The notes beneath the pieces were generated by a model. It worked only from the letters and a program-made list of their open reading frames with translations. It did no database searches and was not told the DNA's origin. This document shows positions 24,626 to 36,351 of a stretch of 64,000 nucleotides of DNA, piece by piece; positions within the stretch are counted from its first letter, which is position 1; each line of letters begins with the position of its first letter. The position numbers and the translations under genes are program-made. This stretch comes from Candidatus Methanoperedens nitratireducens (GTDB lineage Archaea > Halobacteriota > Methanosarcinia > Methanosarcinales > Methanoperedenaceae), in assembly GCA_020724545.1 (NCBI GenBank), contig DYGR01000008.1, positions 1-64,000 of the forward strand, given 5' to 3'.

Positions 24626-24636
24626 TCTTTATCCGA

Positions 24637-25353
24637 TCATAAGGATATGCCTGGCACGATCCTTTTGGCCACTTCCCGATATGCTGAAGTGAGGTCTCCT
24701 TTATCATACCTGAACACATCTTTATCAAGCGACTCACCTGTCATCTTATCCCAGAAGCGGCAGGTATCGCAGGATATCTCATCTGCTAAAACTATATCTC
24801 CGTCCCGCCTTCCAAACTCAAGCTTGAAGTCAGGAAGCAGGAGGTCTCTATCATTCAAGTATTCAACCAGTATGGAATTGATCCTGAGGGCAAGTTCTCT
24901 TATCTTTGAGAGTTCCTCCTCAGTAGCAAGCCCGAGTGCAAGTGCTATATCATCATTGATCATTGGATCGCTATACTCATCGCTCTTGTAATCGAAAAGC
25001 AGGATTGGAGGATCGAGTTTCTGACCTGGCTTGAACGGGTATTTCCTTATCAGGGATCCTGCTGCGATATTCCTGACGATTACCTCGATCTTTATGATCT
25101 CCACAGCATCTACTATCATTTCAGTCTCTGATAGCATACTATCAAAATGCGTTTTAATGCCCCTCTCCTCAAGCAATCTGAAGAGCTCCTCCGATATCCG
25201 GGCGTTATAGTACCCTTTTTTTGGTGCAGTGCTCTTCTTCTTGCCATCAAAAGCGGTCAGGCTATCCCTGAATTCCATTATCAGTTTCTGCGGGTTATCT
25301 GTCTTGAATATCGTCTTCGCCTTGCCAGAATAAAGCGCATCAAGCTTGATCAT
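24637..25353 (-). CDS. purC: phosphoribosylaminoimidazole-succinocarboxamide synthase
   Basis: A 238-aa SAICAR synthetase, the normal family length. It joins CAIR and aspartate with ATP in purine synthesis. The N-terminus YSGKAKTIF is the ATP-binding loop; [18 protein letters not shown] and [14 protein letters not shown] are the substrate-binding blocks; DFKLEFGR closes the active site. It is divergent from the cfb operon with about 108 bases between starts. Confidence 0.95.
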
Positions 25354-25461
25354 ATGCCCCTTATAGTAATCTGATGGATATAATGCTATGGATAGTGCGA
25401 AAGTATTATCATGCTAAGTGTATATAGATGAAAACCGCGCTTTTAAATCTGGAGAAAAAGG

Positions 25462-26574
25462 ATGCCTGTAAAAGAGAAAGAACCAATGATAATGCACCCG
25501 CGGCCAAGTTCAATAGTTGCCGCACTGTACACATTAAGAGACCTGGATACCGATGTTGTTATACTGCACGGCCCTCCAGGATGCTGTTTCAAGCATGCTC
25601 GCCTGCTTGAAGAGGACGGCATGAGGGTTGTTACAACATCCCTTGATGAATCGGGGTTTGTTTTTGGAGGACATGATTCGTTAGTTGAAGTGCTTGAAAA
25701 GGTTATCATGCGCTTTAATCCAAAACGCATAGGAATAGTGGGAACATGCGCAAGCATGATAATAGGAGAAGAGCTACATGAGGCGGTCATGGACGTCCAG
25801 CCTGATGTGCCTGTTATTGAAGTTGAAGTGCACGCTGGCTACAGGGATAACACAAAAGGGGTTATCATAGCGCTTGAATCAGCACTCGCTACAGGAATTA
25901 TCAGTGAAGCAGAGTTCGAGAGGCAAAAATCCCTTCTGAAAGAGGCCACCATGGTTGAGAAACGCCACGGCGCAGCCAGCAAGGAATACCTTGAGCCCAA
26001 CCGAGGGGATCTGAAATTCAAGGTGGCTGGAAGATTGCTTGAACTGATGAAGCAGGGAAAACGCGGACTCAACATACTCAATGCAAAAAAAGAAACTGCC
26101 TTCATGTTCGCAGATATCAACCTTGCGGTTAACCAGATAGCAGAAAAACTCGGCTCTCCTATCATAAACATGGCAAACCTTAACGAGGATGTAGGGCTTC
26201 CGAAGAACAGGAGAAACGCCCGTGAAATCAAAGAAGAGCTAAATAACAGGGGAATGGAGATCCACCACATCACAGGAGGACTGGATGAGTATCCTGTGGC
26301 AGGAAATTGCGCCAATCAGATCATCGGTGAGAAGTACTCGGATTATGATTTTGCAGTAATAACAGGCGTACCCCATGCACTCCCCATGGATAACATAAAT
26401 AATATGGAACTATTCTCTATCACAAACGGCCCGCGTCAGGTAATCCCGTTAAAAGAGATGGGGCACAGGCACGTTATGGTTGAGATAGACCTGCACCCCA
26501 AGACCCTGGGGATAAATCATATCGTTGAATCAGAATTCGGGGCGACACTGCGGGAGATGGCAAAGGATGGCTAA
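25462..26574 (+). CDS. cfbD: Ni-sirohydrochlorin a,c-diamide reductive cyclase, NifD-like subunit
   Basis: A 370-aa nitrogenase-like catalytic component. CfbD, with CfbC and ATP, performs the six-electron reduction and lactam closure that yields 15,17(3)-seco-F430-17(3)-acid. [13 protein letters not shown] near residue 35 and [13 protein letters not shown] near residue 98 hold the probable [4Fe-4S] ligands, and the C-terminal half has [15 protein letters not shown] and [12 protein letters not shown]. It is short for NifD but normal for CfbD. Its last eight bases overlap the cfbC start, so the two subunits are translationally coupled. Confidence 0.92.
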
Positions 26575-27358
26575 ACAAATCGCAATCTACGGAAAAGGCG
26601 GCATAGGCAAATCAAGCACTGCATCAAATGTGGCCGCAGCATGCGCTGATGAGGGCTACCGCGTCACGATAATAGGATGCGACCCGAAGAGCGACTCCTC
26701 TATCACGTTGCTGCGCGGAAGGCGCATTCCCACGATTATGGACCTTATGCGGCAGGGCGTGGACATAAGAGAGGAGGATATCGTGTTTGATGGATACAAA
26801 GGTGTTAAGTGCGTCGAGATAGGAGGTCCTGAGCCTGGCATAGGCTGTGCAGGAAGGGGCATCATCGTAGCTATAAGCCTGCTTAAGAAAACATCAAAGG
26901 CGATAGAGGACACAGACCTTGTGATATATGATGTGCCAGGCGACATTGTCTGCGGGGGATTTGTGGCCCCTGTCAAGAAAGGACTGGTCAGCGAGGCATA
27001 CGTGCTGACATCGGGTGAGTATATGCCGCTATACGCAGCCAATAACATCTGCAAAGGGCTTTCCCGGCTTGAGATGCCGCTTAATGGCGTTATCTGCAAC
27101 TCCCGCGGTGCGCCGAACGAGGAGGCTATCGTCAGCGAGTTCGCAAAGGAGATAGGGAGCCAGTTACTGGCATTTATCCCGAAGGATGTTCTGGTGCAGA
27201 CATGCGAGCGGGAGGGCTTTTCTGTTGTTGAAAAAGAGCCTGGTTCTGCAATAGCCGCAGTTTACCGAAAGCTTGCCCGCAGTATAATGACAAAGAGCGA
27301 TGCACGGGTTCCAGAACCGCTTGATGATGCAAGGCTGAGGGAACTTACGAAGATATAA
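26567..27358 (+). CDS. cfbC: Ni-sirohydrochlorin a,c-diamide reductive cyclase, NifH-like reductase
   Basis: A 263-aa homodimeric Fe protein that feeds electrons to CfbD with ATP hydrolysis. [17 protein letters not shown] is the deviant P-loop, GCDPKSDSS switch I, and CAGRG plus GDIVCGGF contain the cysteines that bind the intersubunit [4Fe-4S] cluster. The ATG at 26567 matches the standard NifH start; an upstream frame through cfbD would only add unrelated residues. The next gene of the pathway, cfbB, is 475 bases away, beyond an inserted repeat-bounded gene. Confidence 0.94.
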
Positions 27359-27362
27359 GGAA

Positions 27363-27773
27363 CCGCAGATGAACGCAGATGAACGCAGATGGTTATATGA
27401 AAAAAAATTTCAATTTTTTTTCGATAAAAAAAGTGATGTCCTCGATATCGCAATTGGTAAACCCAAAGAAGCGATTTCCAGAGAGATAGGCAATGATGTT
27501 ATTATTAGAACTGACCCAAAGACAAAGGAGATAGTGGGCTTCACTATTTTAAATTTTGAGAAACGATTTGAACACAAATCCAGGTCGGAAACGCTGCCGA
27601 TAACGGCTACTTTCGGGCAGATTGAGGAGCTGGAGGCTGAAGGATAATAAGGATTGCAAAGATGCTCTTGCACAGTTTAGAATATATTACGGCAGAGGCA
27701 CAAGAAAACAATGAAGAAAAATCAATGGAATAAACTGCACAATAAATCCGCGTTTATCTGCGTTCATCTGCGG
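27363..27773. repeat. 28-bp inverted repeats framing the DUF2283 gene
   Basis: The left arm (27363-27390) is CCGCAGAT followed by two GAACGCAGAT units; the right arm (27746-27773) is its inverted copy with two mismatches. The 411-base unit sits between cfbC and cfbB, otherwise adjacent operon genes. The same arms recur at 31187-31214 and 31537-31564. Confidence 0.75.
27369..27647 (+). CDS. DUF2283-family small protein
   Basis: The conserved part, FFFDKKSDVLDIAIG followed by SREIGNDVIIRTDPKTKEIVGFTIL, fits DUF2283, a small beta-rich family of unknown role that often occurs near toxin-antitoxin or mobile genes. The only in-frame start codon, ATG 27369, lies inside the left inverted repeat, so the first ten residues (MNADERRWLY) are repeat-encoded. 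A second ATG at 27398 just before the conserved part is one base out of frame across an A/T homopolymer run. Either the repeat donated the start or a slip has broken the original N-terminus. A further 23-codon frame at 27661-27732 is too short to judge. Confidence 0.65.
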   Translation: MNADERRWLYEKKFQFFFDKKSDVLDIAIGKPKEAISREIGNDVIIRTDPKTKEIVGFTILNFEKRFEHKSRSETLPITATFGQIEELEAEG

Positions 27774-27832
27774 CTAATTAAATTCAGCAAAATTTTTGGA
27801 TATTATCATATAAAAATAAAGAGTTGCAACTT

Positions 27833-29266
27833 ATGACCGATACTCTAGACATTCCCCGTATCCTCATTGCAGGAGACCGCTCCTCAGCAGGAAAGACCAC
27901 CATATCTACAGGCATAATGTCCGTGCTCAGGGACATGGGATATACGGTGCAGCCCTTCAAGGTCGGGCTTGATTTCATTGACCCGAGCTACCATACAGAA
28001 GTAACAGGCAGGTATTCCCGCAACCTTGATGGTTATCTGATGCCAGAGCGCACGGTCAGTGAGGTATTCTCATACGCAGCAGAAGATGCGGATATCGCTG
28101 TCATAGAGGGCGTGCGCGGGCTTTTTGAAGGGCTTGAGGCTACAAGCGATATCGGAAGCACGGCCCAGATAGCCAAACTCCTGAGATGTCCTGTCATACT
28201 TGTCATCAATGCAAGGAGCATCACACGCAGCGCTGCTGCTGTTGTTTCAGGATACCGATCATTTGACCCTGAGGTGAATATTGCAGGTGTAATCCTGAAT
28301 AATATCGGAAGTCAGCGCCACAGTGAGAAGGCAAGGACTGCAATTGAGACATACACTGATACCCGGGTTATCGGGGAAGTTCCGCGCAACAGTTCAATGA
28401 AGATCTCAATGCGGCACCTGGGGCTTATCCCTGCACTTGAGGGAAGGCGCAGGCTCAGTGATTTTGATGAGAACCTCGGGAAGATTAAGAATATAATAAA
28501 GGAGAACGTGGATATCGACAGGTTCTTATCATTCGCTAAATCCGCAGAACCTCTACCCCGGCCGGAGAAGAGCATCTTTAAAGCTCAGGTCTCTGAGAGT
28601 GCGCCAAGGATAGGGGTAGCATACGATGAGGCATTTAATTTCTACTACAGGGACAACCTTGAGCTGCTTGAGCTTGCAGGGGCAGAGCTTGTTTACTTCA
28701 GCCCTGTGAATGATAGAAGCCTTCCACGGGTTGATGGATTGTACATAGGGGGGGGATACCCTGAACTGTTCGCCCAGGAGCTTGAGGATAATAGCTCCAT
28801 GCGCGAGTCAATCAAACAGGTCTCGTCCGAAGGATTACCTGTTTATGCGGAATGCGGCGGGCTTATGTATCTAACCCGTAAGATCGAGATGGATGTATCA
28901 GGGAGCGGAAATTATCATATGGCACAGATGCAGGGCGGAACTTTCAATATGGTCGGGGCTGTACCTGGCAGGACATTGATGGGGCATAAGCGGGTCGTGA
29001 GTTACAACATCGGACGCTTTATAAATGATAATGTGATAGGCAAAAGCGGGAATTCGTTTATAGGACATGAATTCCACCACTCAGAGGTCTTAGATCTGCC
29101 TGATGATACCACATTCGCTATCAGGCTTGATCGGGGAACAGGGATCAAGGGAGAATATGACGGCATACTTGTCGGGAATACAATGGCAGCATATGCGCAC
29201 CTGCATGCTGCATCATATACAGGTTTTGCAAGATCTTTTGTGGATTCTTGCAGTGATCGGAAATGA
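27833..29266 (+). CDS. cfbB: Ni-sirohydrochlorin (or cobyrinate) a,c-diamide synthase
   Basis: A 477-aa amidotransferase of the CobB/CbiA family: the ATP-binding domain opens with ILIAGDRSSAGKTT, followed by KVGLDFIDPSYH and EGVRGLFEG. The C-terminal glutaminase domain has its nucleophile C341 in YAECGGLMYL and a GHEFHHSE tail. It amidates acetate side chains a and c of Ni-sirohydrochlorin in F430 synthesis. CbiA of the cobalamin pathway is closely related; the neighbouring cfbD and cfbC genes favour CfbB. ATG 27833 is preferred over a TTG three codons earlier. Its stop overlaps the pdxT start. Confidence 0.88.
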   Translation: MTDTLDIPRILIAGDRSSAGKTTISTGIMSVLRDMGYTVQPFKVGLDFIDPSYHTEVTGRYSRNLDGYLMPERTVSEVFSYAAEDADIAVIEGVRGLFEGLEATSDIGSTAQIAKLLRCPVILVINARSITRSAAAVVSGYRSFDPEVNIAGVILNNIGSQRHSEKARTAIETYTDTRVIGEVPRNSSMKISMRHLGLIPALEGRRRLSDFDENLGKIKNIIKENVDIDRFLSFAKSAEPLPRPEKSIFKAQVSESAPRIGVAYDEAFNFYYRDNLELLELAGAELVYFSPVNDRSLPRVDGLYIGGGYPELFAQELEDNSSMRESIKQVSSEGLPVYAECGGLMYLTRKIEMDVSGSGNYHMAQMQGGTFNMVGAVPGRTLMGHKRVVSYNIGRFINDNVIGKSGNSFIGHEFHHSEVLDLPDDTTFAIRLDRGTGIKGEYDGILVGNTMAAYAHLHAASYTGFARSFVDSCSDRK

Positions 29267-29880
29267 CAGATAAACGTATCGGAATTATAGCAATCCAGGG
29301 AAATATCGAGGAGCATGCTAATGCCATGCTGCAGGCACTAAGGCAGGCAAACCGCAGGGCAGAGATTGTGAAGATAAAACACAGAGGAATCGTCCCGACC
29401 TGCGATGCATTAATCCTTCCTGGCGGGGAGAGCACAACGCTGGGAAGACTTATGGAGCGGGAAGGGATCTCTTCTGAGATAAAAGAAGCAGCACATGCCG
29501 GTATCCCGATAATGGGAACATGCGCAGGACTTGTACTGCTTGCAAAAAAGGGTGACAGGCAGGTAGATATGACAGGACAGCCGCTCCTTGGACTGATGGA
29601 TATCCATGTTAACAGGAACGCCTTCGGGCGCCAGAGGGAATCATTCGAGTGCCCGGTGGATTTCAGGGGTCTTGATTCTCCGTTTAATGCCGTGTTTATC
29701 AGGGCGCCGTGTATCACCAGGTGCAAAGAGAATGTTGAGGTACTCTCAAGACACGAGGGCTTCATAGTGGCAGCCAGGCAAAAGAATATACTTGCTCTGG
29801 CATTTCACCCTGAGCTGACGGATGATCTACGAATACATCATTATTTTTTGAGAATGCTTGACCTTACCGGAACAGTATAA
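29263..29880 (+). CDS. pdxT: pyridoxal 5'-phosphate synthase glutaminase subunit
   Basis: A 205-aa class I glutaminase that supplies ammonia to PdxS for pyridoxal phosphate synthesis. IGIIAIQGNIEEH and LILPGGESTTLGRL are PdxT signatures, C87 in GTCAG is the nucleophile, and FHPELTDD near the end contains the His-Glu pair. It overlaps cfbB as ATGA, so it is translated from the cfb transcript. pdxS is not in the window. Confidence 0.95.
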   Translation: MTDKRIGIIAIQGNIEEHANAMLQALRQANRRAEIVKIKHRGIVPTCDALILPGGESTTLGRLMEREGISSEIKEAAHAGIPIMGTCAGLVLLAKKGDRQVDMTGQPLLGLMDIHVNRNAFGRQRESFECPVDFRGLDSPFNAVFIRAPCITRCKENVEVLSRHEGFIVAARQKNILALAFHPELTDDLRIHHYFLRMLDLTGTV

Positions 29881-29972
29881 AATTTAAAAATAATTATGCT
29901 TCGGGCATGAATCAGATCATACGGCCATGATATATTATCTGGTTTAGCAAATTCTCCTGAATCTTATGCTCA

Positions 29973-31142
29973 TTACAACTCCCCCTTAAACGCCCTATCC
30001 AGCACAGCCGGCAGCAGCGCGTCTAATTCAGCCGAGGTCTCTGCCTGGAGGCGCCTGAGTGTGTTCACCTTTGCCTGCAGAGCGTCGAGGTAGGCGACGA
30101 TGCGGCGCTGTTCGGAGAGTGGCGGGAGAGGAACTAATAGCTGCCGAAACCATTTCATATTCGTCCGCGGCATTTTTGTTCCTGCTGAATTTGCAACAGT
30201 CTCCTTGACAACCTGTGGATTCCTCAGAAAAGCTGCAAGATAGTTACGATCAACGATAGTAGCATCTGGTCTGAGGATTACAAGCTCAGTTGTTGCACAT
30301 CCTTCAAATGATGGCGTTACTACTTTATTTAAATAAGGACGAAGCTTTGAATACAAAACATCATTTGTTCTAAATAGGACTGCCGAACCTCGAATCTCAG
30401 CCTCTTGACAAGTACGATATTCTAATATCCTTCCGCTATGTGCCTCTATATTTTCCAAAGATAAATAAGGGTAGTCAAAATATTCTTTCTGACTTGCCTG
30501 AATTTGTTGGCCACCCTCAGTTGTGATTTTATTAAGTGGAAGCTGCTGGCATGATTTGAGATTTTCAAAGATTTTTTTATATGCTGCCTTAATTAGCGCC
30601 TCTCCCTTTTCCCCCGCCTTCCTCCTCAGCCCCCGCGCCTCCTCTATCTTCGCCGCCAGCTCCTGGATGCGCGCCACGATGCGGCGCTGCTCTGAGAGAG
30701 GAGGGAGGGGGATTTGCATAGCGAGAAATTTCTCTTCCTTCAATCGATTTCGGCTTGTTGGCGTTCCACCTGTACTCAAACCAAGCGCTTCTTCCCAGAT
30801 GGGCGCACGACTGAAATAAAGCCATAAATAATGACCATCAATGAGATCAGAGTTTATCTTGAAGCAGGGAAACTCGTTTGATACATAGCAGCCATGATTT
30901 TCATTGGTTGCAACAGCAAAAGAACCTTTCCAAGCAAAAAGCCGATTATATACAAAGTCTCCCTTCTCGACACGATAGACCTTATTTGCTTGAATCTCCG
31001 AACCTAATTTAATATCCTTTATATACAGTCCTTTGGAATACCAGTGTGCTCCGAGGATGCGGTGCTTTTTTTCTGGGTCTACAGATTCAGGTCTACTGAC
31101 GGGCGTTAATATCTTCCCCAGCGCCACCATCGGAAAGCTCAT
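29973..31142 (-). CDS. hsdS: type I restriction-modification specificity subunit
   Basis: A 389-aa HsdS with two target-recognition domains. Each is followed by the conserved helical spacer motif LPPLSEQRRIVA (near residues 150 and 345). The first domain includes KHRILGAHWYSKGLYIKD, the second YPYLSLENIEAHSGRIL. It would set the DNA sequence recognised by the methylase. It is full length and looks intact, unlike hsdR and hsdM upstream. ATG 31142 has GGTG six bases before it; a GTG three codons earlier is also in frame. A 420-base repeat block separates it from the next upstream gene. Confidence 0.92.
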   Translation of the reverse strand: MSFPMVALGKILTPVSRPESVDPEKKHRILGAHWYSKGLYIKDIKLGSEIQANKVYRVEKGDFVYNRLFAWKGSFAVATNENHGCYVSNEFPCFKINSDLIDGHYLWLYFSRAPIWEEALGLSTGGTPTSRNRLKEEKFLAMQIPLPPLSEQRRIVARIQELAAKIEEARGLRRKAGEKGEALIKAAYKKIFENLKSCQQLPLNKITTEGGQQIQASQKEYFDYPYLSLENIEAHSGRILEYRTCQEAEIRGSAVLFRTNDVLYSKLRPYLNKVVTPSFEGCATTELVILRPDATIVDRNYLAAFLRNPQVVKETVANSAGTKMPRTNMKWFRQLLVPLPPLSEQRRIVAYLDALQAKVNTLRRLQAETSAELDALLPAVLDRAFKGEL

Positions 31143-31186
31143 AGTCTGCACCGCCCTGACTTCGACAACTCTATACGATTTATTAA

Positions 31187-31564
31187 CCGCAGATGAACGC
31201 AGATAAACGCAGATACTCGATTGATGCTGTTATTGTAATAGAACACGGATTGCGCGGATGACACGGATGCGCACGGATTAAAATTAAAGTTATCTGTGTA
31301 AATCCGTCTAATCCGTGTCATCCGTGTTCTGAGTTCACTGAGGCTGTGCTTTTTCATATCACGGCGCAGAGAGCACAAAGACTCATGCCGGTTTTCTTTG
31401 CGCTCTGGTATGAAAGATTTTTCATCACCATCTATGGACAACAATCCATAGCCAACTTTGCGGTGTGATGCGCCGAAATTCGTTACGGGAAGTAGTCTCT
31501 TAACAAAGTATCTTCTAAATCCCATGACGGGATTATATCTGCGTTCATCTGCGTTTATCTGCGG
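31187..31564. repeat. nested set of three inverted repeats between the nuclease and hsdS genes
   Basis: This 421-base gene-free gap is mostly repeats. The outer arms (31187-31214 and 31537-31564) are the CCGCAGAT/ACGCAGAT type also found in the cfb operon. Inside them, ACACGGAT-type arms at 31241-31279 and 31301-31329 face each other, as do GCGCAGAGAGCACAAAGA-type arms at 31363-31381 and 31395-31407. A 145-codon minus-strand frame crosses the block, but its product changes character at every repeat and I do not call it a gene. Confidence 0.75.
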
Positions 31565-31572
31565 TTCTTTAC

Positions 31573-32673
31573 TCATCTCCTCGCCCCCAGCCTGCGCTCC
31601 TCCAGCATCCTGCGCGTGCGCTCAAGCTCTGCCGCCAGTATCTTCTCATCAGGCAGCACCATGCGGTATTCCGCTGCCAGTACTTTATTGGTCAGCCCTT
31701 CAAGAGCATATCGGGCAACCGCCTCATCCTTCTGAGCGCAGAGTATCAAACCAACAGGCGGATTTTCATCTGCATGAGTCCAGTGCTCTCTGGCATAGTT
31801 GAGGTAGAGATGCATTTGACCAGCATCAGCATGAGTGAATTTACCGAGCTTCAGGTCGATAACTACAAGACAGCGCAGGCGACGATGGAAAAAAAGGAGG
31901 TCGACACGATACCATTCGTCACCTATGCGAAGACGGCGCTGTCGTCCTATGAAGGCAAAATCTCCTCCAAGTTCCAGCAGGAAACTCTCCAACTTGTGGA
32001 TTAATGCCTCTTCAAGGTCGTTCTCTGAGTACTCATCTTTAAGCCCTAGAAATTCCAGCACAAATGGGTCTTTAATTTCCTCCTCAGGCATAACAGAATC
32101 TTCTGGGAATGGCTCAGCTCCTTTTTTCAGCATGGCAGCTTTGTTTTTAGATAGGAGAGCGCGCTCGTAAAACTTAGTTGAAATCTGGCGCTCCAGTTGG
32201 CGCACCGACCACCCGCCGTGCAGAGCTTCTGCTTCGTAAAATCTGCGGGCTTCCGGTTCTTTAACCCTAAGAAGTTTAACATAATGTGACCAGGGAAGAG
32301 GGAACCTCATAGCAGATGCAATTTGGTCGGATTTCGCAGACAGTGTCTGCGAAATTGGCCATTCAAGGTAAAAAAGCCGCATCTGTTCAAGATTACGCTC
32401 AGAGTATCCCCGCCCAAACCTGGCCGTCAGATCAGCACTCAGCCGTTTCAGCAACTCTATTCCATATTCAGCACGTTTCTCTCCTTCCTGTTCAAACTCA
32501 ACAATTCGCCGTCCTATCTCCCAGTAAGCTGATGTTATAATCGCATTGATTGCCCGCGCAGAGGTTTTGCGCGCCGATTCAAGCAAGCCAATGACATCAG
32601 ACAGGATAGTATCGTAACCAATTATGGAACTGTCTTCTTTCATTATTACTATTTTCCTGGAACTTTTAGCCAT
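31573..32673 (-). CDS. DUF1016/YhcG-type PD-(D/E)XK nuclease
   Basis: A 366-aa protein with the N-terminal helical DUF1016 domain (YWEIGRRIVEFEQ, then RGYSERNLEQMRLFYL). The C-terminal nuclease domain contains FIGRQRRLRIGDEWYRVDLLFFHR and LVVIDLKLGKF, giving the D...D-x-K catalytic pattern. These proteins are common beside type I restriction genes and are predicted to cleave DNA; their exact role is unknown. Here it lies between hsdM and hsdS. A GAGAGG site precedes the ATG. The gene looks intact. Confidence 0.9.
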   Translation of the reverse strand: MAKSSRKIVIMKEDSSIIGYDTILSDVIGLLESARKTSARAINAIITSAYWEIGRRIVEFEQEGEKRAEYGIELLKRLSADLTARFGRGYSERNLEQMRLFYLEWPISQTLSAKSDQIASAMRFPLPWSHYVKLLRVKEPEARRFYEAEALHGGWSVRQLERQISTKFYERALLSKNKAAMLKKGAEPFPEDSVMPEEEIKDPFVLEFLGLKDEYSENDLEEALIHKLESFLLELGGDFAFIGRQRRLRIGDEWYRVDLLFFHRRLRCLVVIDLKLGKFTHADAGQMHLYLNYAREHWTHADENPPVGLILCAQKDEAVARYALEGLTNKVLAAEYRMVLPDEKILAAELERTRRMLEERRLGARR

Positions 32674-32697
32674 TTATCATCCTCTCATAAATGTTTT

Positions 32698-32767
32698 TTT
32701 CAACATTGTAATTTCTCGCACCATTGGTGAGAGAATTTCAAAAACTCACCCTCCAGCAATGTTGAAA
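32698..32767. repeat. double hairpin between hsdM and the nuclease gene
   Basis: TTTCAACATTG (32698-32708) and CAATGTTGAAA (32757-32767) are perfect 11-base inverted arms. Inside them TCTCGCACC and GGTGAGAGA (32714-32734) form a second near-perfect hairpin. It lies in the 186-base space between two genes of the same strand, and could be a processing or termination structure. Confidence 0.55.
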
Positions 32768-32859
32768 TTATCCTGTGTGTTCACTCTATGCGGCAACAAT
32801 TATATCCTCTCCACAATTTCTGCCACCAGTGGTTGCAGTTTTTAATTCTAAGCGTAGAC

Positions 32860-34053
32860 TCATGGTTTTATCCCGTCTGCCAGTACCTGTTTTATCTCTG
32901 TCATGATCTCTGCAATTCTCTGCTCCTTCATCAGAATGCTCTCGGTCAACTGTTCAGGCGGCAGATGTTCCAGATCCCCCTTGCCGTTGGGGTTCTTGAT
33001 ATCAAGGTTATAGCCGCTCTCAACCACCTTAGCCACAGATACTTTCCACGCATGTCCATTCTCCTTTCTGTCCTTCCACCAGGCGATAACAGGCTCAAAC
33101 TCTTCAAATGGCATCGGCTGGGTTTTGGTGTATTGCTTCCTGCCCTCTGGCAGAGGAACCTCATAATACCATATCTCCTTTGTCGGACCGTCGCGCTCAA
33201 AGAACAGCAGGTTTGTGGGAATCCCTGTATAGGGTGCAAAAACACCATTGGGCAGCCGCACTATAGTATGCAGATTGAACTCTTCCAGCAGTTCTTTCTT
33301 GATGCGCGCGCATACACCATCGCCAAATAAAGTACCGTTCGGGACAACTATGCCACATCTGCCGCCTCTCTTCCCACCAGCGCCTCTTCTCAACTTCCTC
33401 ATTATCAGTTGAAGAAAGAGAAGCGCGGTTTCAGCAGTCTGTTTATCCTCCGGGAAATTCGAGAGTATCCCCCGCTCTTCCTCTCCTCCAAACGGCGGGT
33501 TCGTAAGTATGATATCCACCCTGTCCTTATCTCCTATCTCTCTCAGAGGAGAACGAAGAGAATTGCCTGAATCTATCTGAGGGGACTCAAGACCATGAAG
33601 CAAAAGGTTCATCTGGCAAAGTAAATAAGGCAGCGGCTTCGCATCTCCTCCAGTGATCGATCCTTTCTGTAAGACTTCAAAATCCGATGCCTTTTTGCAC
33701 TGCTTCCGCAGATGCTCAAAAGACTCTACAAGAAACCCGCCAGTACCGCAAGCCGGGTCAAGCACTACCTCACCAAGCTTTGGATCAGTTACCTCGACCA
33801 TGAAGCGAATAACAGGACGAGGCGTATAGAACTCACCTGAGTCGCCTGCCGTATCCCTCATTTCTTTCAGCATGCTTTCATACAGGTGCGAAAGTGTATG
33901 GATCTCCTCTGAAGCGGTGAAATGGATGCTGTTCACCTTATTGATAACATCGCGCAGCAGATATCCATTGACCATGCGGTTGATCGTGCCCCTGAATACC
34001 GTTGCGATCACGTCCCGCCTATCACCGCCATTTGCACCATGCAGGCCTCTCAA
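32860..34053 (-). pseudogene. hsdM: type I methylase subunit, 5'-truncated
   Basis: The remaining 397 codons contain the N6-adenine methylase core: DSGEFYTPRPVIRFMVE, the SAM-binding VVLDPACGTGGFLVES and the catalytic NPPFGG. The N-terminal HsdM helical domain (family total usually about 480-520 aa) is mostly absent. The frame stays open a little upstream (GLFAYLRGLHGANGGD), where it overlaps the end of the hsdR fragment; the joint looks like a deletion that took the hsdR 3' end and hsdM 5' end together. A TTG at 34053 could start a product that keeps the catalytic motifs, so residual methylation cannot be excluded. Confidence 0.8.
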
Positions 34054-34715
34054 ATAAGCAAACAGACCCGCTCCCTTCTTGTCCGAAGCGGGGCGTTATA
34101 AGCAATGTGGCATAAAAGGTCGAATGGATCTGCATCGTACTTTTTAGTAGCATTCGCAAGTTGCTCGATAGTTACGCCTCTCTCCTCCAGCAAGGATATA
34201 ATCTGCCTGCGCTGTTCTGCGTCACTCCATTTTGAACGGAGTTCTGCCGCTCCTGTGTACATGCTCTTTAACTGTTTTGCCGTGTAATCTGTATATTTGA
34301 TGACCGAGAGCCTCCTGCCATCAGAATCAAGTTCATAGACTACATCCGCTATTATTTCAACAGAACCACCATTTACATAGTACTTTTTTGGGGCACCCTC
34401 AAAATAATCCGGCGTTTTAGGGGTCTGGCGTAAAGGAGCCTCAACTTCATCTATGAATTCTTTTGTCTCGTTTTTGAACTTCTCCTTGATTGAATTTCCC
34501 TCATTATCGATTTTTTCCTCTATAATGAGCGCCGGCTCACCATCAAATTCAGGGTCAGCGAACAGGCGAGTTGCGCTTCCTGTATAGTCAAGAATAGTGA
34601 AAAAGAGCTTACCATAGTCCTCTCTAACGCGGGTTCCCCTGCCTATGATCTGCTTAAAATCCACCATTGAGTTAATGACCTTGAAAAGAACGATATTCTT
34701 GCATGTCTTTTATCG
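34050..34715 (-). pseudogene. hsdR: 3' fragment of type I restriction subunit
   Basis: The frame carries helicase motif VI and the C-terminal part of an EcoEI-type HsdR: TCKNIVLFKVINSMVDF (before the first ATG at 34667), then KQIIGRGTRVREDYGKLFF. It ends abruptly at APLRTRRERVCLLI, short of the usual C-terminus. It is out of frame with the 5' fragment. Confidence 0.85.
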
Positions 34716-35808
34716 GCCGCCAGCCAGTGGCATCGATACTTGGAACGATTCTGTGAACCCGGTACGGCGCCAGGAAACCATCCTCGATACCCTGTTTCAG
34801 GCTGTAAGTATAAATCGGGTTTCCGAAATACCGATATGTATCCCTGTTATCCTTTCTAAGAGGGGTTGCAGTCATGCCGATCTGATATGCAGGTTCAAAG
34901 TATTCCAGTATTTCACGCCAGTTGCTTTCATCTTTAGCACTTCCCCTGTGGCACTCATCGACAACGATAAGGTCAAAGAAATCTCTGGTATATTGTTTAT
35001 AAAGACCGGGCCTGCGCTCATCTTTTGCAATTGCCTGGTAGGTTGAAAAATATATCTCCCTGCTCTTGATTGCTTCACCCTCTATCTTAATTCTGGCATC
35101 TCCCATAGATGCGAATGTCTTATCTTTCGGATCATCAACAAGGATGTTCCTATCAGCGAGATAAAGCACCTTCGGGCGCCTGTGCTCACATGTCCTGTTC
35201 CAGCGTGTATCCCATAGTTTCCAGATGATCTGGAACGCAATATATGTCTTGCCTGTCCCAGTAGCTAACGTCAGCAAGATCCTCTTTTTGCCCTGCAGAA
35301 CAGCCTTGATCGTGCGGTTGATCGCAATTTCCTGGTAATATCGTGGAGTCTTACCAGGCAAGGTACTGCATGGCGCAAGAAGTGTTTGCGCGATTTTTGG
35401 TGTAATGTCTTCTGATTGGCTAAGCCTCATCCAGAGCTCCTCTGGCGCAGGGAAGCTCTCCAGATCCGTATCCTTGCCAGTGATAAAATCGTGTTCAACG
35501 ATTCCTTTACCATTTGTGGAATATGCAAACTTGAGACCAAGAATTTCAGCATACTCCTTTGCCTGTTGTAATCCATCGGCAGCATTCTTATAAGCAGATT
35601 TTGCCTCAACAACTGCGATGGAAAAGTCTCTTCTATACTTTAATAAGTAATCAGCCCTTTTCTGTTTCTTTCTTATGCCCTTATCTCCTGCAAGGATGAT
35701 CCTTCCATCTGTGAAGATTTTCTGCTCGCTGATCTGATCATCGCTCCAGCCCGCTGAGTAAAGCTTCGGCAAGACATATTTTCTGCAAGTATCAGCTTCA
35801 GTTATCAA
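34672..35808 (-). pseudogene. hsdR: 5' fragment of type I restriction subunit
   Basis: A TTG start with GGAG upstream opens 378 codons. The nuclease domain (KRADYLLKYRRDFSIAVVEAK) is followed by Walker A TLATGTGKTYIA, the DECHRGS box and the MTATP motif III. After IDATGWRPIKDM the frame jumps to KNIVLF sequence in a different frame and stops. About 120-130 residues with helicase motifs IV-V are missing in between. Restriction activity should be lost unless the break is an assembly error. Confidence 0.88.
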
Positions 35809-35937
35809 ACTAATTCTCCATTGTAATCGAGGTTGGATTATCGCAATTTATTTAAGAATACTATTATATTAGCTTGAAAGAGTACTATCTATATATTTTT
35901 TTCTACCTAATGAATATTTAAACAAACCGGAGAAGAG

Positions 35938-36197
35938 ATGGAATCGCAAAAAGTGATGAGAGAAGAACAAACTGCTGGACGTGGTACTTTAGCAACACCG
36001 TCCTCATGGTGGGTAGAGAGATTGAGGATAGAACGACCGAGACCCGAAGATCAGGAACCACTGCAGAGGAATCAAGAAAGCTCTTCCAACCATGGGCTGC
36101 CATGCTGGAGGAGAATTCCCGCAAGACGCGGGAATTGCTTCAGGGTACGCCTGATCCTGAGAAATACAGGGAATTCTACGATACCGCTCTCCAATAA
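35938..36197 (+). pseudogene. possible frameshifted small gene upstream of acnB
   Basis: In the 540-base gap between hsdR and acnB, ATG 35938 has a clear GGAGAAGAG site, but its frame soon turns into low-quality sequence. A second frame, open from 35922 to TAA 36197, looks coding (FSNTVLMVGREIEDRTTETR to LLQGTPDPEKYREFYDTALQ) yet has only ATG 36006, without a ribosome site. One shift between them would give a helical protein of about 85 residues, faintly like phasins or PhaE. Flanking sequence (35820-35935, 36200-36350) shows A/T-rich promoter-like DNA only. Confidence 0.35.
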
Positions 36198-36351
36198 AAG
36201 ATCTGACTATCCAGATAAAAGAGTTATCTGAGAAACAGTAGGGTCTTTGTTGGTAATTCCGCTTCTTAAACAGACAAATCCCGTACTGGATGTAATCCAA
36301 TAGTTAAATTAATAGAATATTATCTCCTTTTATGAAAGCGTGATCACATTA

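What the first reader, a model, noticed from the sequence alone, without database searches (positions are those of the whole stretch)
27363..27773. DUF2283 gene carried by an inverted-repeat unit inside the F430 operon
The same 28-base arms as at 31187/31537 frame a DUF2283 gene and split cfbC from cfbB. The only in-frame start codon of the gene is part of the repeat. This suggests a small gene-carrying mobile unit using the repeats as ends.
Basis: partly seen in the sequence, partly recalled or inferred. Interest (0 to 1): 0.5.

Follow-up and report, generated by a model that had tools for sequence, protein, structure and literature searches.

The report
Decayed defence remnant between repeat arms
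A small gene that splits a coenzyme-making operon in an archaeon is the leftover of a decayed toxin/defence cluster, and the repeats beside it belong to a widespread family of inverted-repeat units that normally carry a small nuclease gene, which looks like an overlooked kind of mobile element.

Summary
In detail: two inverted 30-nt arms (27361-27390, 27746-27775) enclose a DUF2283 gene and part cfbC from cfbB. Its only start codon near the 5' end lies in the left arm.

In relative G022 the same junction holds PBECR2-like gene, DUF2283, mcrC, mcrB and a right arm. The window keeps a left arm, DUF2283 without its native start codon, the last codons of mcrB and a right arm. So DUF2283 is the residue of a decayed defence/toxin-like island. 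Of 25 resolved congener junctions, 5 are uninterrupted, 3 hold DUF2283 and 2 have both arms. The insert is far more alike between species than the flanking cfb genes, so it has moved horizontally.

The arms are a dispersed family (84 in this genome), mostly gene-free 67-73-nt palindromes. Their gene-bearing form carries a GxxExxY PD-(D/E)XK nuclease. Six arm families track GxxExxY clades in this genus. Across many phyla, GxxExxY genes lie between 10-bp-phased inverted repeats (60 of 74 loci; 1 of 187 control windows). I found no description in the papers searched. Mobility itself is not shown: no clean target duplication was seen, and arms are not always the ends.

The parts
25462..26574 (+). 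cfbD-like gene (Oxidored_nitro)
   Evidence: Pfam E 3.9e-19; operon context
26567..27358 (+). cfbC-like gene (Fer4_NifH); its stop TAA is followed after 2 nt by the left arm
   Evidence: Pfam E 1.1e-84; sequence
27361..27390 (+). left arm, repeat family F1, three 10-bp units, no mismatch to the consensus; holds the ATG at 27369
27369..27647 (+). DUF2283 reading frame (92 aa); first 8 codons (MNADERRW) come from the arm and its junction
27391..27647 (+). stretch homologous to the 3' end of the PBECR2-like gene and to DUF2283 of G022 and G025; native ATGGAA reads ATGAA here (1-nt deletion), so the native start is out of frame
   Evidence: alignment; protein alignment A2
27671..27733 (+). last 20 codons and stop of an mcrB gene (HSLEYITAEAQENNEEKSME*), remnant
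   Evidence: aligned with intact mcrB 3' ends of G022 and G024
27746..27775 (-). right arm, repeat family F1, one mismatch to the consensus
   Evidence: the same right arm and flank occur in G001 and G022
27833..29266 (+). cfbB-like gene (CbiA + GATase_3)
   Evidence: Pfam E 3.8e-42
31185..31214 (+). left arm of a second F1 unit, no protein-coding cargo recognised
31240..31330 (.). palindrome of another family (F2, ACACGGAT units) nested inside the second F1 unit
   Evidence: no Rfam family fits
31537..31566 (-). right arm of the second F1 unit

Best explanation
The arms are copies of a dispersed palindromic repeat family (F1) whose gene-bearing form encodes a GxxExxY PD-(D/E)XK nuclease. F1 arms lie in the cfbC-cfbB junction of many congeners. 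In some lineages that junction also took up a defence island (PBECR2-like gene, DUF2283, mcrC, mcrB), which spread between species. In the window the island has been deleted down to DUF2283 and the tail of mcrB. The left arm is now fused to the last codons of the upstream partner gene, and the arm's ATG replaces the lost native start codon. Shown: the homologies, the loss of the partner and of mcrBC, the frameshifted native start, the closer similarity of the insert than of the flanks, and the association of F1 arms with F1-type GxxExxY genes. Inferred: the order of events, that recombination or illegitimate deletion at the arms did the trimming, that DUF2283 is an antitoxin, and that DUF2283 here is expressed poorly if at all.
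For: G022 junction: 100-aa PBECR2-like gene (E 3.4e-4, below the Pfam cut-off), DUF2283, mcrC (PF10117, E 6.2e-71), mcrB (AAA_5), right F1 arm, cfbB. G025: partial left arm, PBECR2-like gene, DUF2283, first codons of mcrC; G024: mcrC, mcrB, right arm. Window: homology resumes directly after the left arm, one G of ATGGAA is missing, and the mcrB tail aligns. The other 8 DUF2283 proteins aligned all start MEK/MGK at the lost position. Of the 11 congener DUF2283 loci examined, the partner lies upstream over at least 95 of its 100 aa in L115, L116, L118, L121 and L124 and as a remnant in L117 and L120. Horizontal movement: four-fold sites of the junction DUF2283 copies are identical at 58 of 74, against 155 of 346 (cfbC) and 240 of 561 (cfbB) for the same three genome pairs, Fisher p about 1e-7 and 5e-9; mcrC G022-G024 83 of 120 against 45 of 113 and 61 of 179. 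F1 family and GxxExxY: and the internal-deletion derivative in this genome.
Against: Both arms together are found in only 2 of 25 junctions, so framing by arms is not a stable feature. The left arm here has three full units while G022 and G025 have one and about two, so the arm was not simply inherited from such an ancestor. The DUF2283 frame is still open over 82 codons, and the excess of amino-acid changes is marginal (Fisher p 0.036 with one way of counting, 0.24 with another), so decay of the gene itself is not proven. The pooled pairs in the four-fold test share genomes and are not independent.
Confidence: 0.72

Rival explanations
1. One reading: arm-DUF2283-arm is a small mobile cassette that uses the arms as ends and carries DUF2283 as its own cargo.
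For: Arms on both sides; DUF2283 absent from the closest relative G001, which keeps the right arm and flank; insert closer between species than its flanks; other genes also lie between F1 arms in L242, L243, L246, L102.
Against: Only one copy of this unit in the genome. The DUF2283 copies elsewhere in the genus are not framed by an arm pair. Partner gene missing, native start frameshifted, mcrB tail left inside. Both arms in 2 of 25 junctions.
Confidence: 0.1
2. The arms serve as homology for exchange: many near-identical F1 arms let the contents of the junction be swapped by homologous recombination between species or loci, without any dedicated enzyme. (This can hold together with the best explanation.)
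For: Same junction with different contents in different species: PIN gene in G017, HepT-like/nucleotidyltransferase in G010, PBECR2-like/DUF2283/mcrBC in G022. Flanks of two F1 elements in L094 map to different places in G001.
Against: Most junctions have one arm or none (11 of 25 have no F1 arm), and the conserved cfb genes on both sides give ample homology by themselves. The order of the rearranged contigs was not checked for misassembly.
Confidence: 0.35
3. The arms are ordinary hairpin repeats that happen to sit in an operon spacer, a place tolerant of insertions; neither the arms nor the GxxExxY link has to do with movement.
For: The spacer also collects palindromes of other families: any of six families in 16 of 25 junctions. 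The RNA of 27330-27800 folds with the arms as a long stem (z -5.3).
Against: Arms match the ends of GxxExxY units with clade-specific pairing: 7 label changes, minimum 6, shuffled mean 16.5, none of 200 shuffles as low. An F1 GxxExxY deletion derivative is in this very genome. Two elements present here are absent in G001.
Confidence: 0.2

Closest known systems
GxxExxY protein family (TIGR04256; Pfam PF13366 PDDEXK_3)
   Same: F1-type GxxExxY genes of congeners have the window's arms on both sides; a deletion derivative of such a unit is in this genome
   Different: The window unit holds DUF2283 and an mcrB remnant, not GxxExxY; the genome's only GxxExxY match is a fragment
REP sequences with RAYT transposases, and MITEs (recalled as kinds, not from a call)
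   Same: Many short palindromic non-coding copies plus rarer gene-bearing copies with the same arms; a short form arisen by internal deletion is present
   Different: The gene-bearing form has a PD-(D/E)XK nuclease of Cas4/lambda-exonuclease type fold, no known transposase; arms are built of 10-bp units; no clean target duplication seen
McrBC restriction plus PBECR2-like/DUF2283 gene pair
   Same: The junction of G022 holds the full set; the window keeps DUF2283 and the mcrB tail
   Different: The window lacks the PBECR2-like gene, mcrC and nearly all of mcrB
Cas4 SSO0001 (4ic1) and lambda-type exonucleases
   Same: Best structural matches of the GxxExxY model: Foldseek E 1.7e-4; VIA Z 9.9, rmsd 3.3, 98 aligned; conserved D75, E85, K87
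   Different: GxxExxY is about 122-155 aa here; no solved structure matches its profile at E below 0.01 by sequence

Membership tests
Pfam DUF2283 (PF10049) | profile score over the curated cut-off | tested here: met
   27.1 bits, cut-off 23
type II toxin-antitoxin module | two adjacent small genes, toxin plus antitoxin | tested here: not met
   two adjacent genes are met in relatives, but the window has lost the upstream gene; the toxin call for the partner is weak (PBECR2 E 3.4e-4, 21.2 bits, cut-off 27.1)
type II toxin-antitoxin module | neutralisation of a toxin by DUF2283 | not testable with these tools
   needs expression assays
MITE / palindromic repeat of F1 type | many dispersed copies with inverted arms | tested here: met
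   84 arms in this genome, present in 31 of 31 genomes of the genus, reversed control 0; 24 of 32 arm pairs are hairpins with 7-50 nt inside
MITE / palindromic repeat of F1 type | gene-bearing element with the same arms | tested here: met
   F1 arms on both sides of six F1-clade GxxExxY genes; internal-deletion derivative
MITE / palindromic repeat of F1 type | target-site duplication at insertion | tested here: inconclusive
   two presence/absence sites against G001; neither shows a clear duplication, and the F1 site is not clean
REP with RAYT transposase | Y1 (HUH) transposase and GTAG-type motif | not tested
   family PF01797 was not searched
GxxExxY element (proposed here) | GxxExxY gene between clade-specific inverted arms | tested here: not met
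   the window unit has the F1 arms but no GxxExxY gene inside

The most novel reading that the evidence does not exclude
GxxExxY nucleases and their family-specific, 10-bp-phased inverted arms form a so far undescribed class of chromosomal mobile element found in archaea and many bacterial phyla. The nuclease recognises its own arms, possibly as hairpins or cruciforms; the abundant 67-73-nt palindromes are its gene-less offspring; and arm pairs can pick up and move passenger genes such as toxin-antitoxin and restriction genes, of which the window's DUF2283 unit is a decayed case.
Probability: 0.4. Interest if true: 0.85.

Novelty: new variant of a known kind. Interest (0 to 1): 0.62.

Why it matters
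GxxExxY is a nuclease family with no reported role in the papers I could search. Its genes lie between inverted arms in organisms from archaea to many bacterial phyla, and the arms change together with the protein. That gives the family a testable job (acting on its own arms). It would also explain a large set of short palindromes in intergenic regions, and the odd N-termini such as MNADERR that arise when repeat arms supply start codons. For the window itself it shows how a start codon inside a repeat can arise secondarily and how a defence island decays inside a biosynthetic operon.

Tried and rejected
Rfam: no family at the gathering score over 26000-33000; only weak microRNA-like chance matches to the nested F2 palindrome. 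Synteny of the window with G001 for clean insertions near the operon: only 24631-36320 aligned, and the indels that I printed downstream of the hsd genes' start were coding-sequence losses or gains, not repeat insertions. The 211-bp F1-arm unit of G003, G017 and G022 was expected to end at the arms, but similarity runs about 100 nt beyond them, so arms are not always ends. Phages: GxxExxY in 0 of 50,697 records; plasmids: 8 of 72,556; in those 8, 3 had an inverted-repeat score of 13 or more against 1 of 16 shifted windows, a weaker result than in the chromosomal set. DUF2283 model: pLDDT 76, no Foldseek match at E 0.001. The PBECR2-like gene, McrC and DUF2283 gave no PADLOC match. I first read the 405-aa gene of L246 as a nuclease; Pfam has no match, so I dropped that. 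The contents of the G015 and G016 junctions (small minus-strand genes) were read by eye only. The genus name is not established; the closest named GxxExxY loci are from Methanosarcinales MAGs.

Full report
WHAT IS THERE. The arms at 27361-27390 and 27746-27775 are real and far beyond chance. They enclose a 92-aa frame with a DUF2283 match and separate a Fer4_NifH gene from a CbiA/GATase_3 gene (cfbC and cfbB by family and order). The only ATG, GTG or TTG in the frame besides an internal GTG is ATG 27369 in the left arm.

THE ARMS ARE A LARGE FAMILY. The genome has 84 thirty-nt arms (43 forward, 41 reverse, up to 2 mismatches), the highest count of 31 genomes of the genus, all of which have the family; the reversed control gives 0. 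In the stretches that I fetched, 103 arm clusters gave 32 inward-facing pairs. Twenty-one are tight palindromes with 7-13 nt between the arms, three have 47-50 nt, and eight have more than 130 nt. The eight hold nested palindromes of other families (L094, L105, window 31185-31566), a group II intron fragment inside an arm (L077; read by eye, not by a family search), another short element (L091), a nucleotidyltransferase gene with a truncated neighbour (L102), an internal-deletion derivative of a GxxExxY unit (L113) and the DUF2283 unit.

THE JUNCTION IN RELATIVES. Of 30 genomes with a cfbB orthologue, the window's own included, 25 gave a resolved cfbC-cfbB junction. Of the other five, G008 has only a cfbC fragment at a contig edge, G006 and G028 have cfbB away from cfbC or at an edge, and G020 and G026 end at contig edges. 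Five of 25 are uninterrupted (4-7 nt). F1 arms occur on the left in 9, on the right in 7, on either side in 14 and on both sides in 2 (G000 and G003). Some arm of six families occurs in 16. DUF2283 occurs in 3 (G000, G022, G025). G022 has the fullest version: PBECR2-like gene, DUF2283, mcrC, mcrB, right arm. G024 has mcrC, mcrB and right arm. G025 has a partial left arm, the gene pair and the first codons of mcrC. The closest relative, G001 (cfbB 95% identical), has no DUF2283; it has the same right arm and flank and two other palindromes. On the cfbB tree the DUF2283 or mcrBC states are spread over four separate places.

WHAT HAPPENED TO DUF2283. The alignment shows the left arm fused to the last codons of the PBECR2-like gene, a missing G in the native ATGGAA, and an mcrB tail of 20 codons before the right arm. 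The missing G puts the native ATG out of frame, and the frame then runs back into the arm, where ATG 27369 happens to fit. An AAGGA stretch lies 7 nt upstream of it (read directly). If transcribed, the two arms fold into a long stem that contains this ATG. So translation from it is possible but unproven.

DID THE INSERT MOVE. Four-fold degenerate sites of the three junction DUF2283 copies agree at 58 of 74, while cfbC and cfbB of the same genomes agree at 155 of 346 and 240 of 561. mcrC of G022 and G024 behaves likewise. The DUF2283 part used a wrong frame for G000 and was replaced. The insert has been exchanged between species, but the agent is unknown: recombination through the cfb genes alone could do it. 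DUF2283 copies outside the junction (L117-L125) are not framed by an arm pair; L119 has two arms of other families on one strand and L122 a single F1 arm.

THE WIDER FINDING. Searching the genus for GxxExxY (PF13366) gave matches in 22 of 31 genomes. In the 30 loci fetched (of 50 matches listed), an automatic rule found a matching arm in 25 and the same family on both sides in 19; most of the rest are fragments or contig edges. I defined the six arm families after looking at these loci, so the labelling is not blind. The match between arm label and protein tree is a separate test: on 25 proteins of at least 90 aa (5 fragments dropped) the labels need 7 changes, the minimum being 6, against a shuffled mean of 16.5, with 0 of 200 shuffles as low. 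F2, F3 and F4 are each one side of a branch; F1 shares its clade with two unlabelled rows that lie at contig edges; F5 is spread over two places beside F3; F6 is a single protein.

OTHER PHYLA. A scan of named genomes with these proteins returned 80 loci from many phyla by their titles. The scan favours relatives of the F1 protein. Six loci with incomplete flanks were set aside. Of the 74 others, 60 had an inverted-repeat score of at least 13 between the flanks, against 1 of 187 windows shifted by 600-1400 nt in the same loci; at 16 or more it is 53 of 74 against 0 of 187. So 14 of 74 lack a strong repeat. Over the 58 loci with score 15 or more (incomplete loci allowed), arm similarity follows protein similarity (Mantel r 0.44, 0 of 2000 permutations), and arms repeat at a 10-nt period (self-match 0.54 at lag 10, 0.17-0.31 at other lags from 5 to 15). 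Eight plasmid copies gave 3 of 8. One of those, in Sphingomonas, sits between fabD and fabG, an operon spacer like cfbC-cfbB.

MECHANISM. The GxxExxY model (pLDDT 91.5) is closest to Cas4 SSO0001 and lambda-type exonucleases, with archaeal Holliday-junction resolvases further down; D75, E85 and K87 are invariant in 18 proteins. A nuclease of this fold between clade-specific inverted arms suggests that it acts on the arms; this is inference. That L113 in this genome is an F1 GxxExxY unit with its middle deleted (31 of 31 nt at the start and 120 of 131 nt at the right end match L153) fits an origin of short palindromes by internal deletion. Against simple transposition: no clean target duplication, near absence from plasmids and absence from phages, and a unit whose similarity runs beyond the arms.

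LITERATURE. Searches: GxxExxY, DUF2283, the repeat string, palindromic repeat with Methanoperedens, PDDEXK_3 or inverted repeat, inverted repeat with toxin-antitoxin, mobile and Methanoperedens, TIGR04256/PF13366/PDDEXK_3, DUF4258/COG5428. GxxExxY is named in two papers, of which I saw passages: PMC8934634, a gene beside a reverse transcriptase, and PMC12085832, a virus gene table. Neither passage links it to repeats. All others were seen only as search listings with abstract starts. The library holds open-licence papers only, so a description elsewhere is possible.

VERDICT. The window unit is a decay product and of modest interest by itself. The repeat family that it exposes, with its matched GxxExxY nucleases, is the part worth following.

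Noticed in passing
L158-L237 and L128-L157: GxxExxY nuclease genes lie between inverted arms made of 10-bp units, and the arm sequence changes with the protein clade.
   Followed up: partly
L265, L267, L271 (plasmid copies; L271 between fabD and fabG of Sphingomonas): GxxExxY copies sit in spacers between annotated genes read in the same direction, with the gene in operon direction, as DUF2283 does here.
   Followed up: no
window 34067-34077, 34707, 36059-36192: The type I restriction region and the gene after it lack several hundred bases in each of several places compared with G001, so this stretch of the window seems to be eroding.
   Followed up: partly
L094 10183-10248 and 13262-13289: Flanks of these F1 arms map to different places in G001, so F1 elements lie at synteny breakpoints; misassembly not excluded.
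   Followed up: no
L244, L255, L256, L257, L259, L260: A repeated unit of about 211 bp with F1 arms and a conserved interior in G003, G017 and G022; similarity continues about 100 nt beyond both arms.
   Followed up: partly
L094 11255-11328 against G001:C1 524680/524681: A CACAGAG-type palindrome nested in a TATCCGAAAA palindrome is present in G000 and absent from G001.
   Followed up: partly
cfbC-cfbB junctions of G010, G015, G016, G017 (L070, L072, L071, L069): Different small gene sets sit in the same operon spacer in different species: HepT-like plus nucleotidyltransferase in G010, PIN-domain gene in G017, other small genes in G015 and G016 (by eye).
   Followed up: partly
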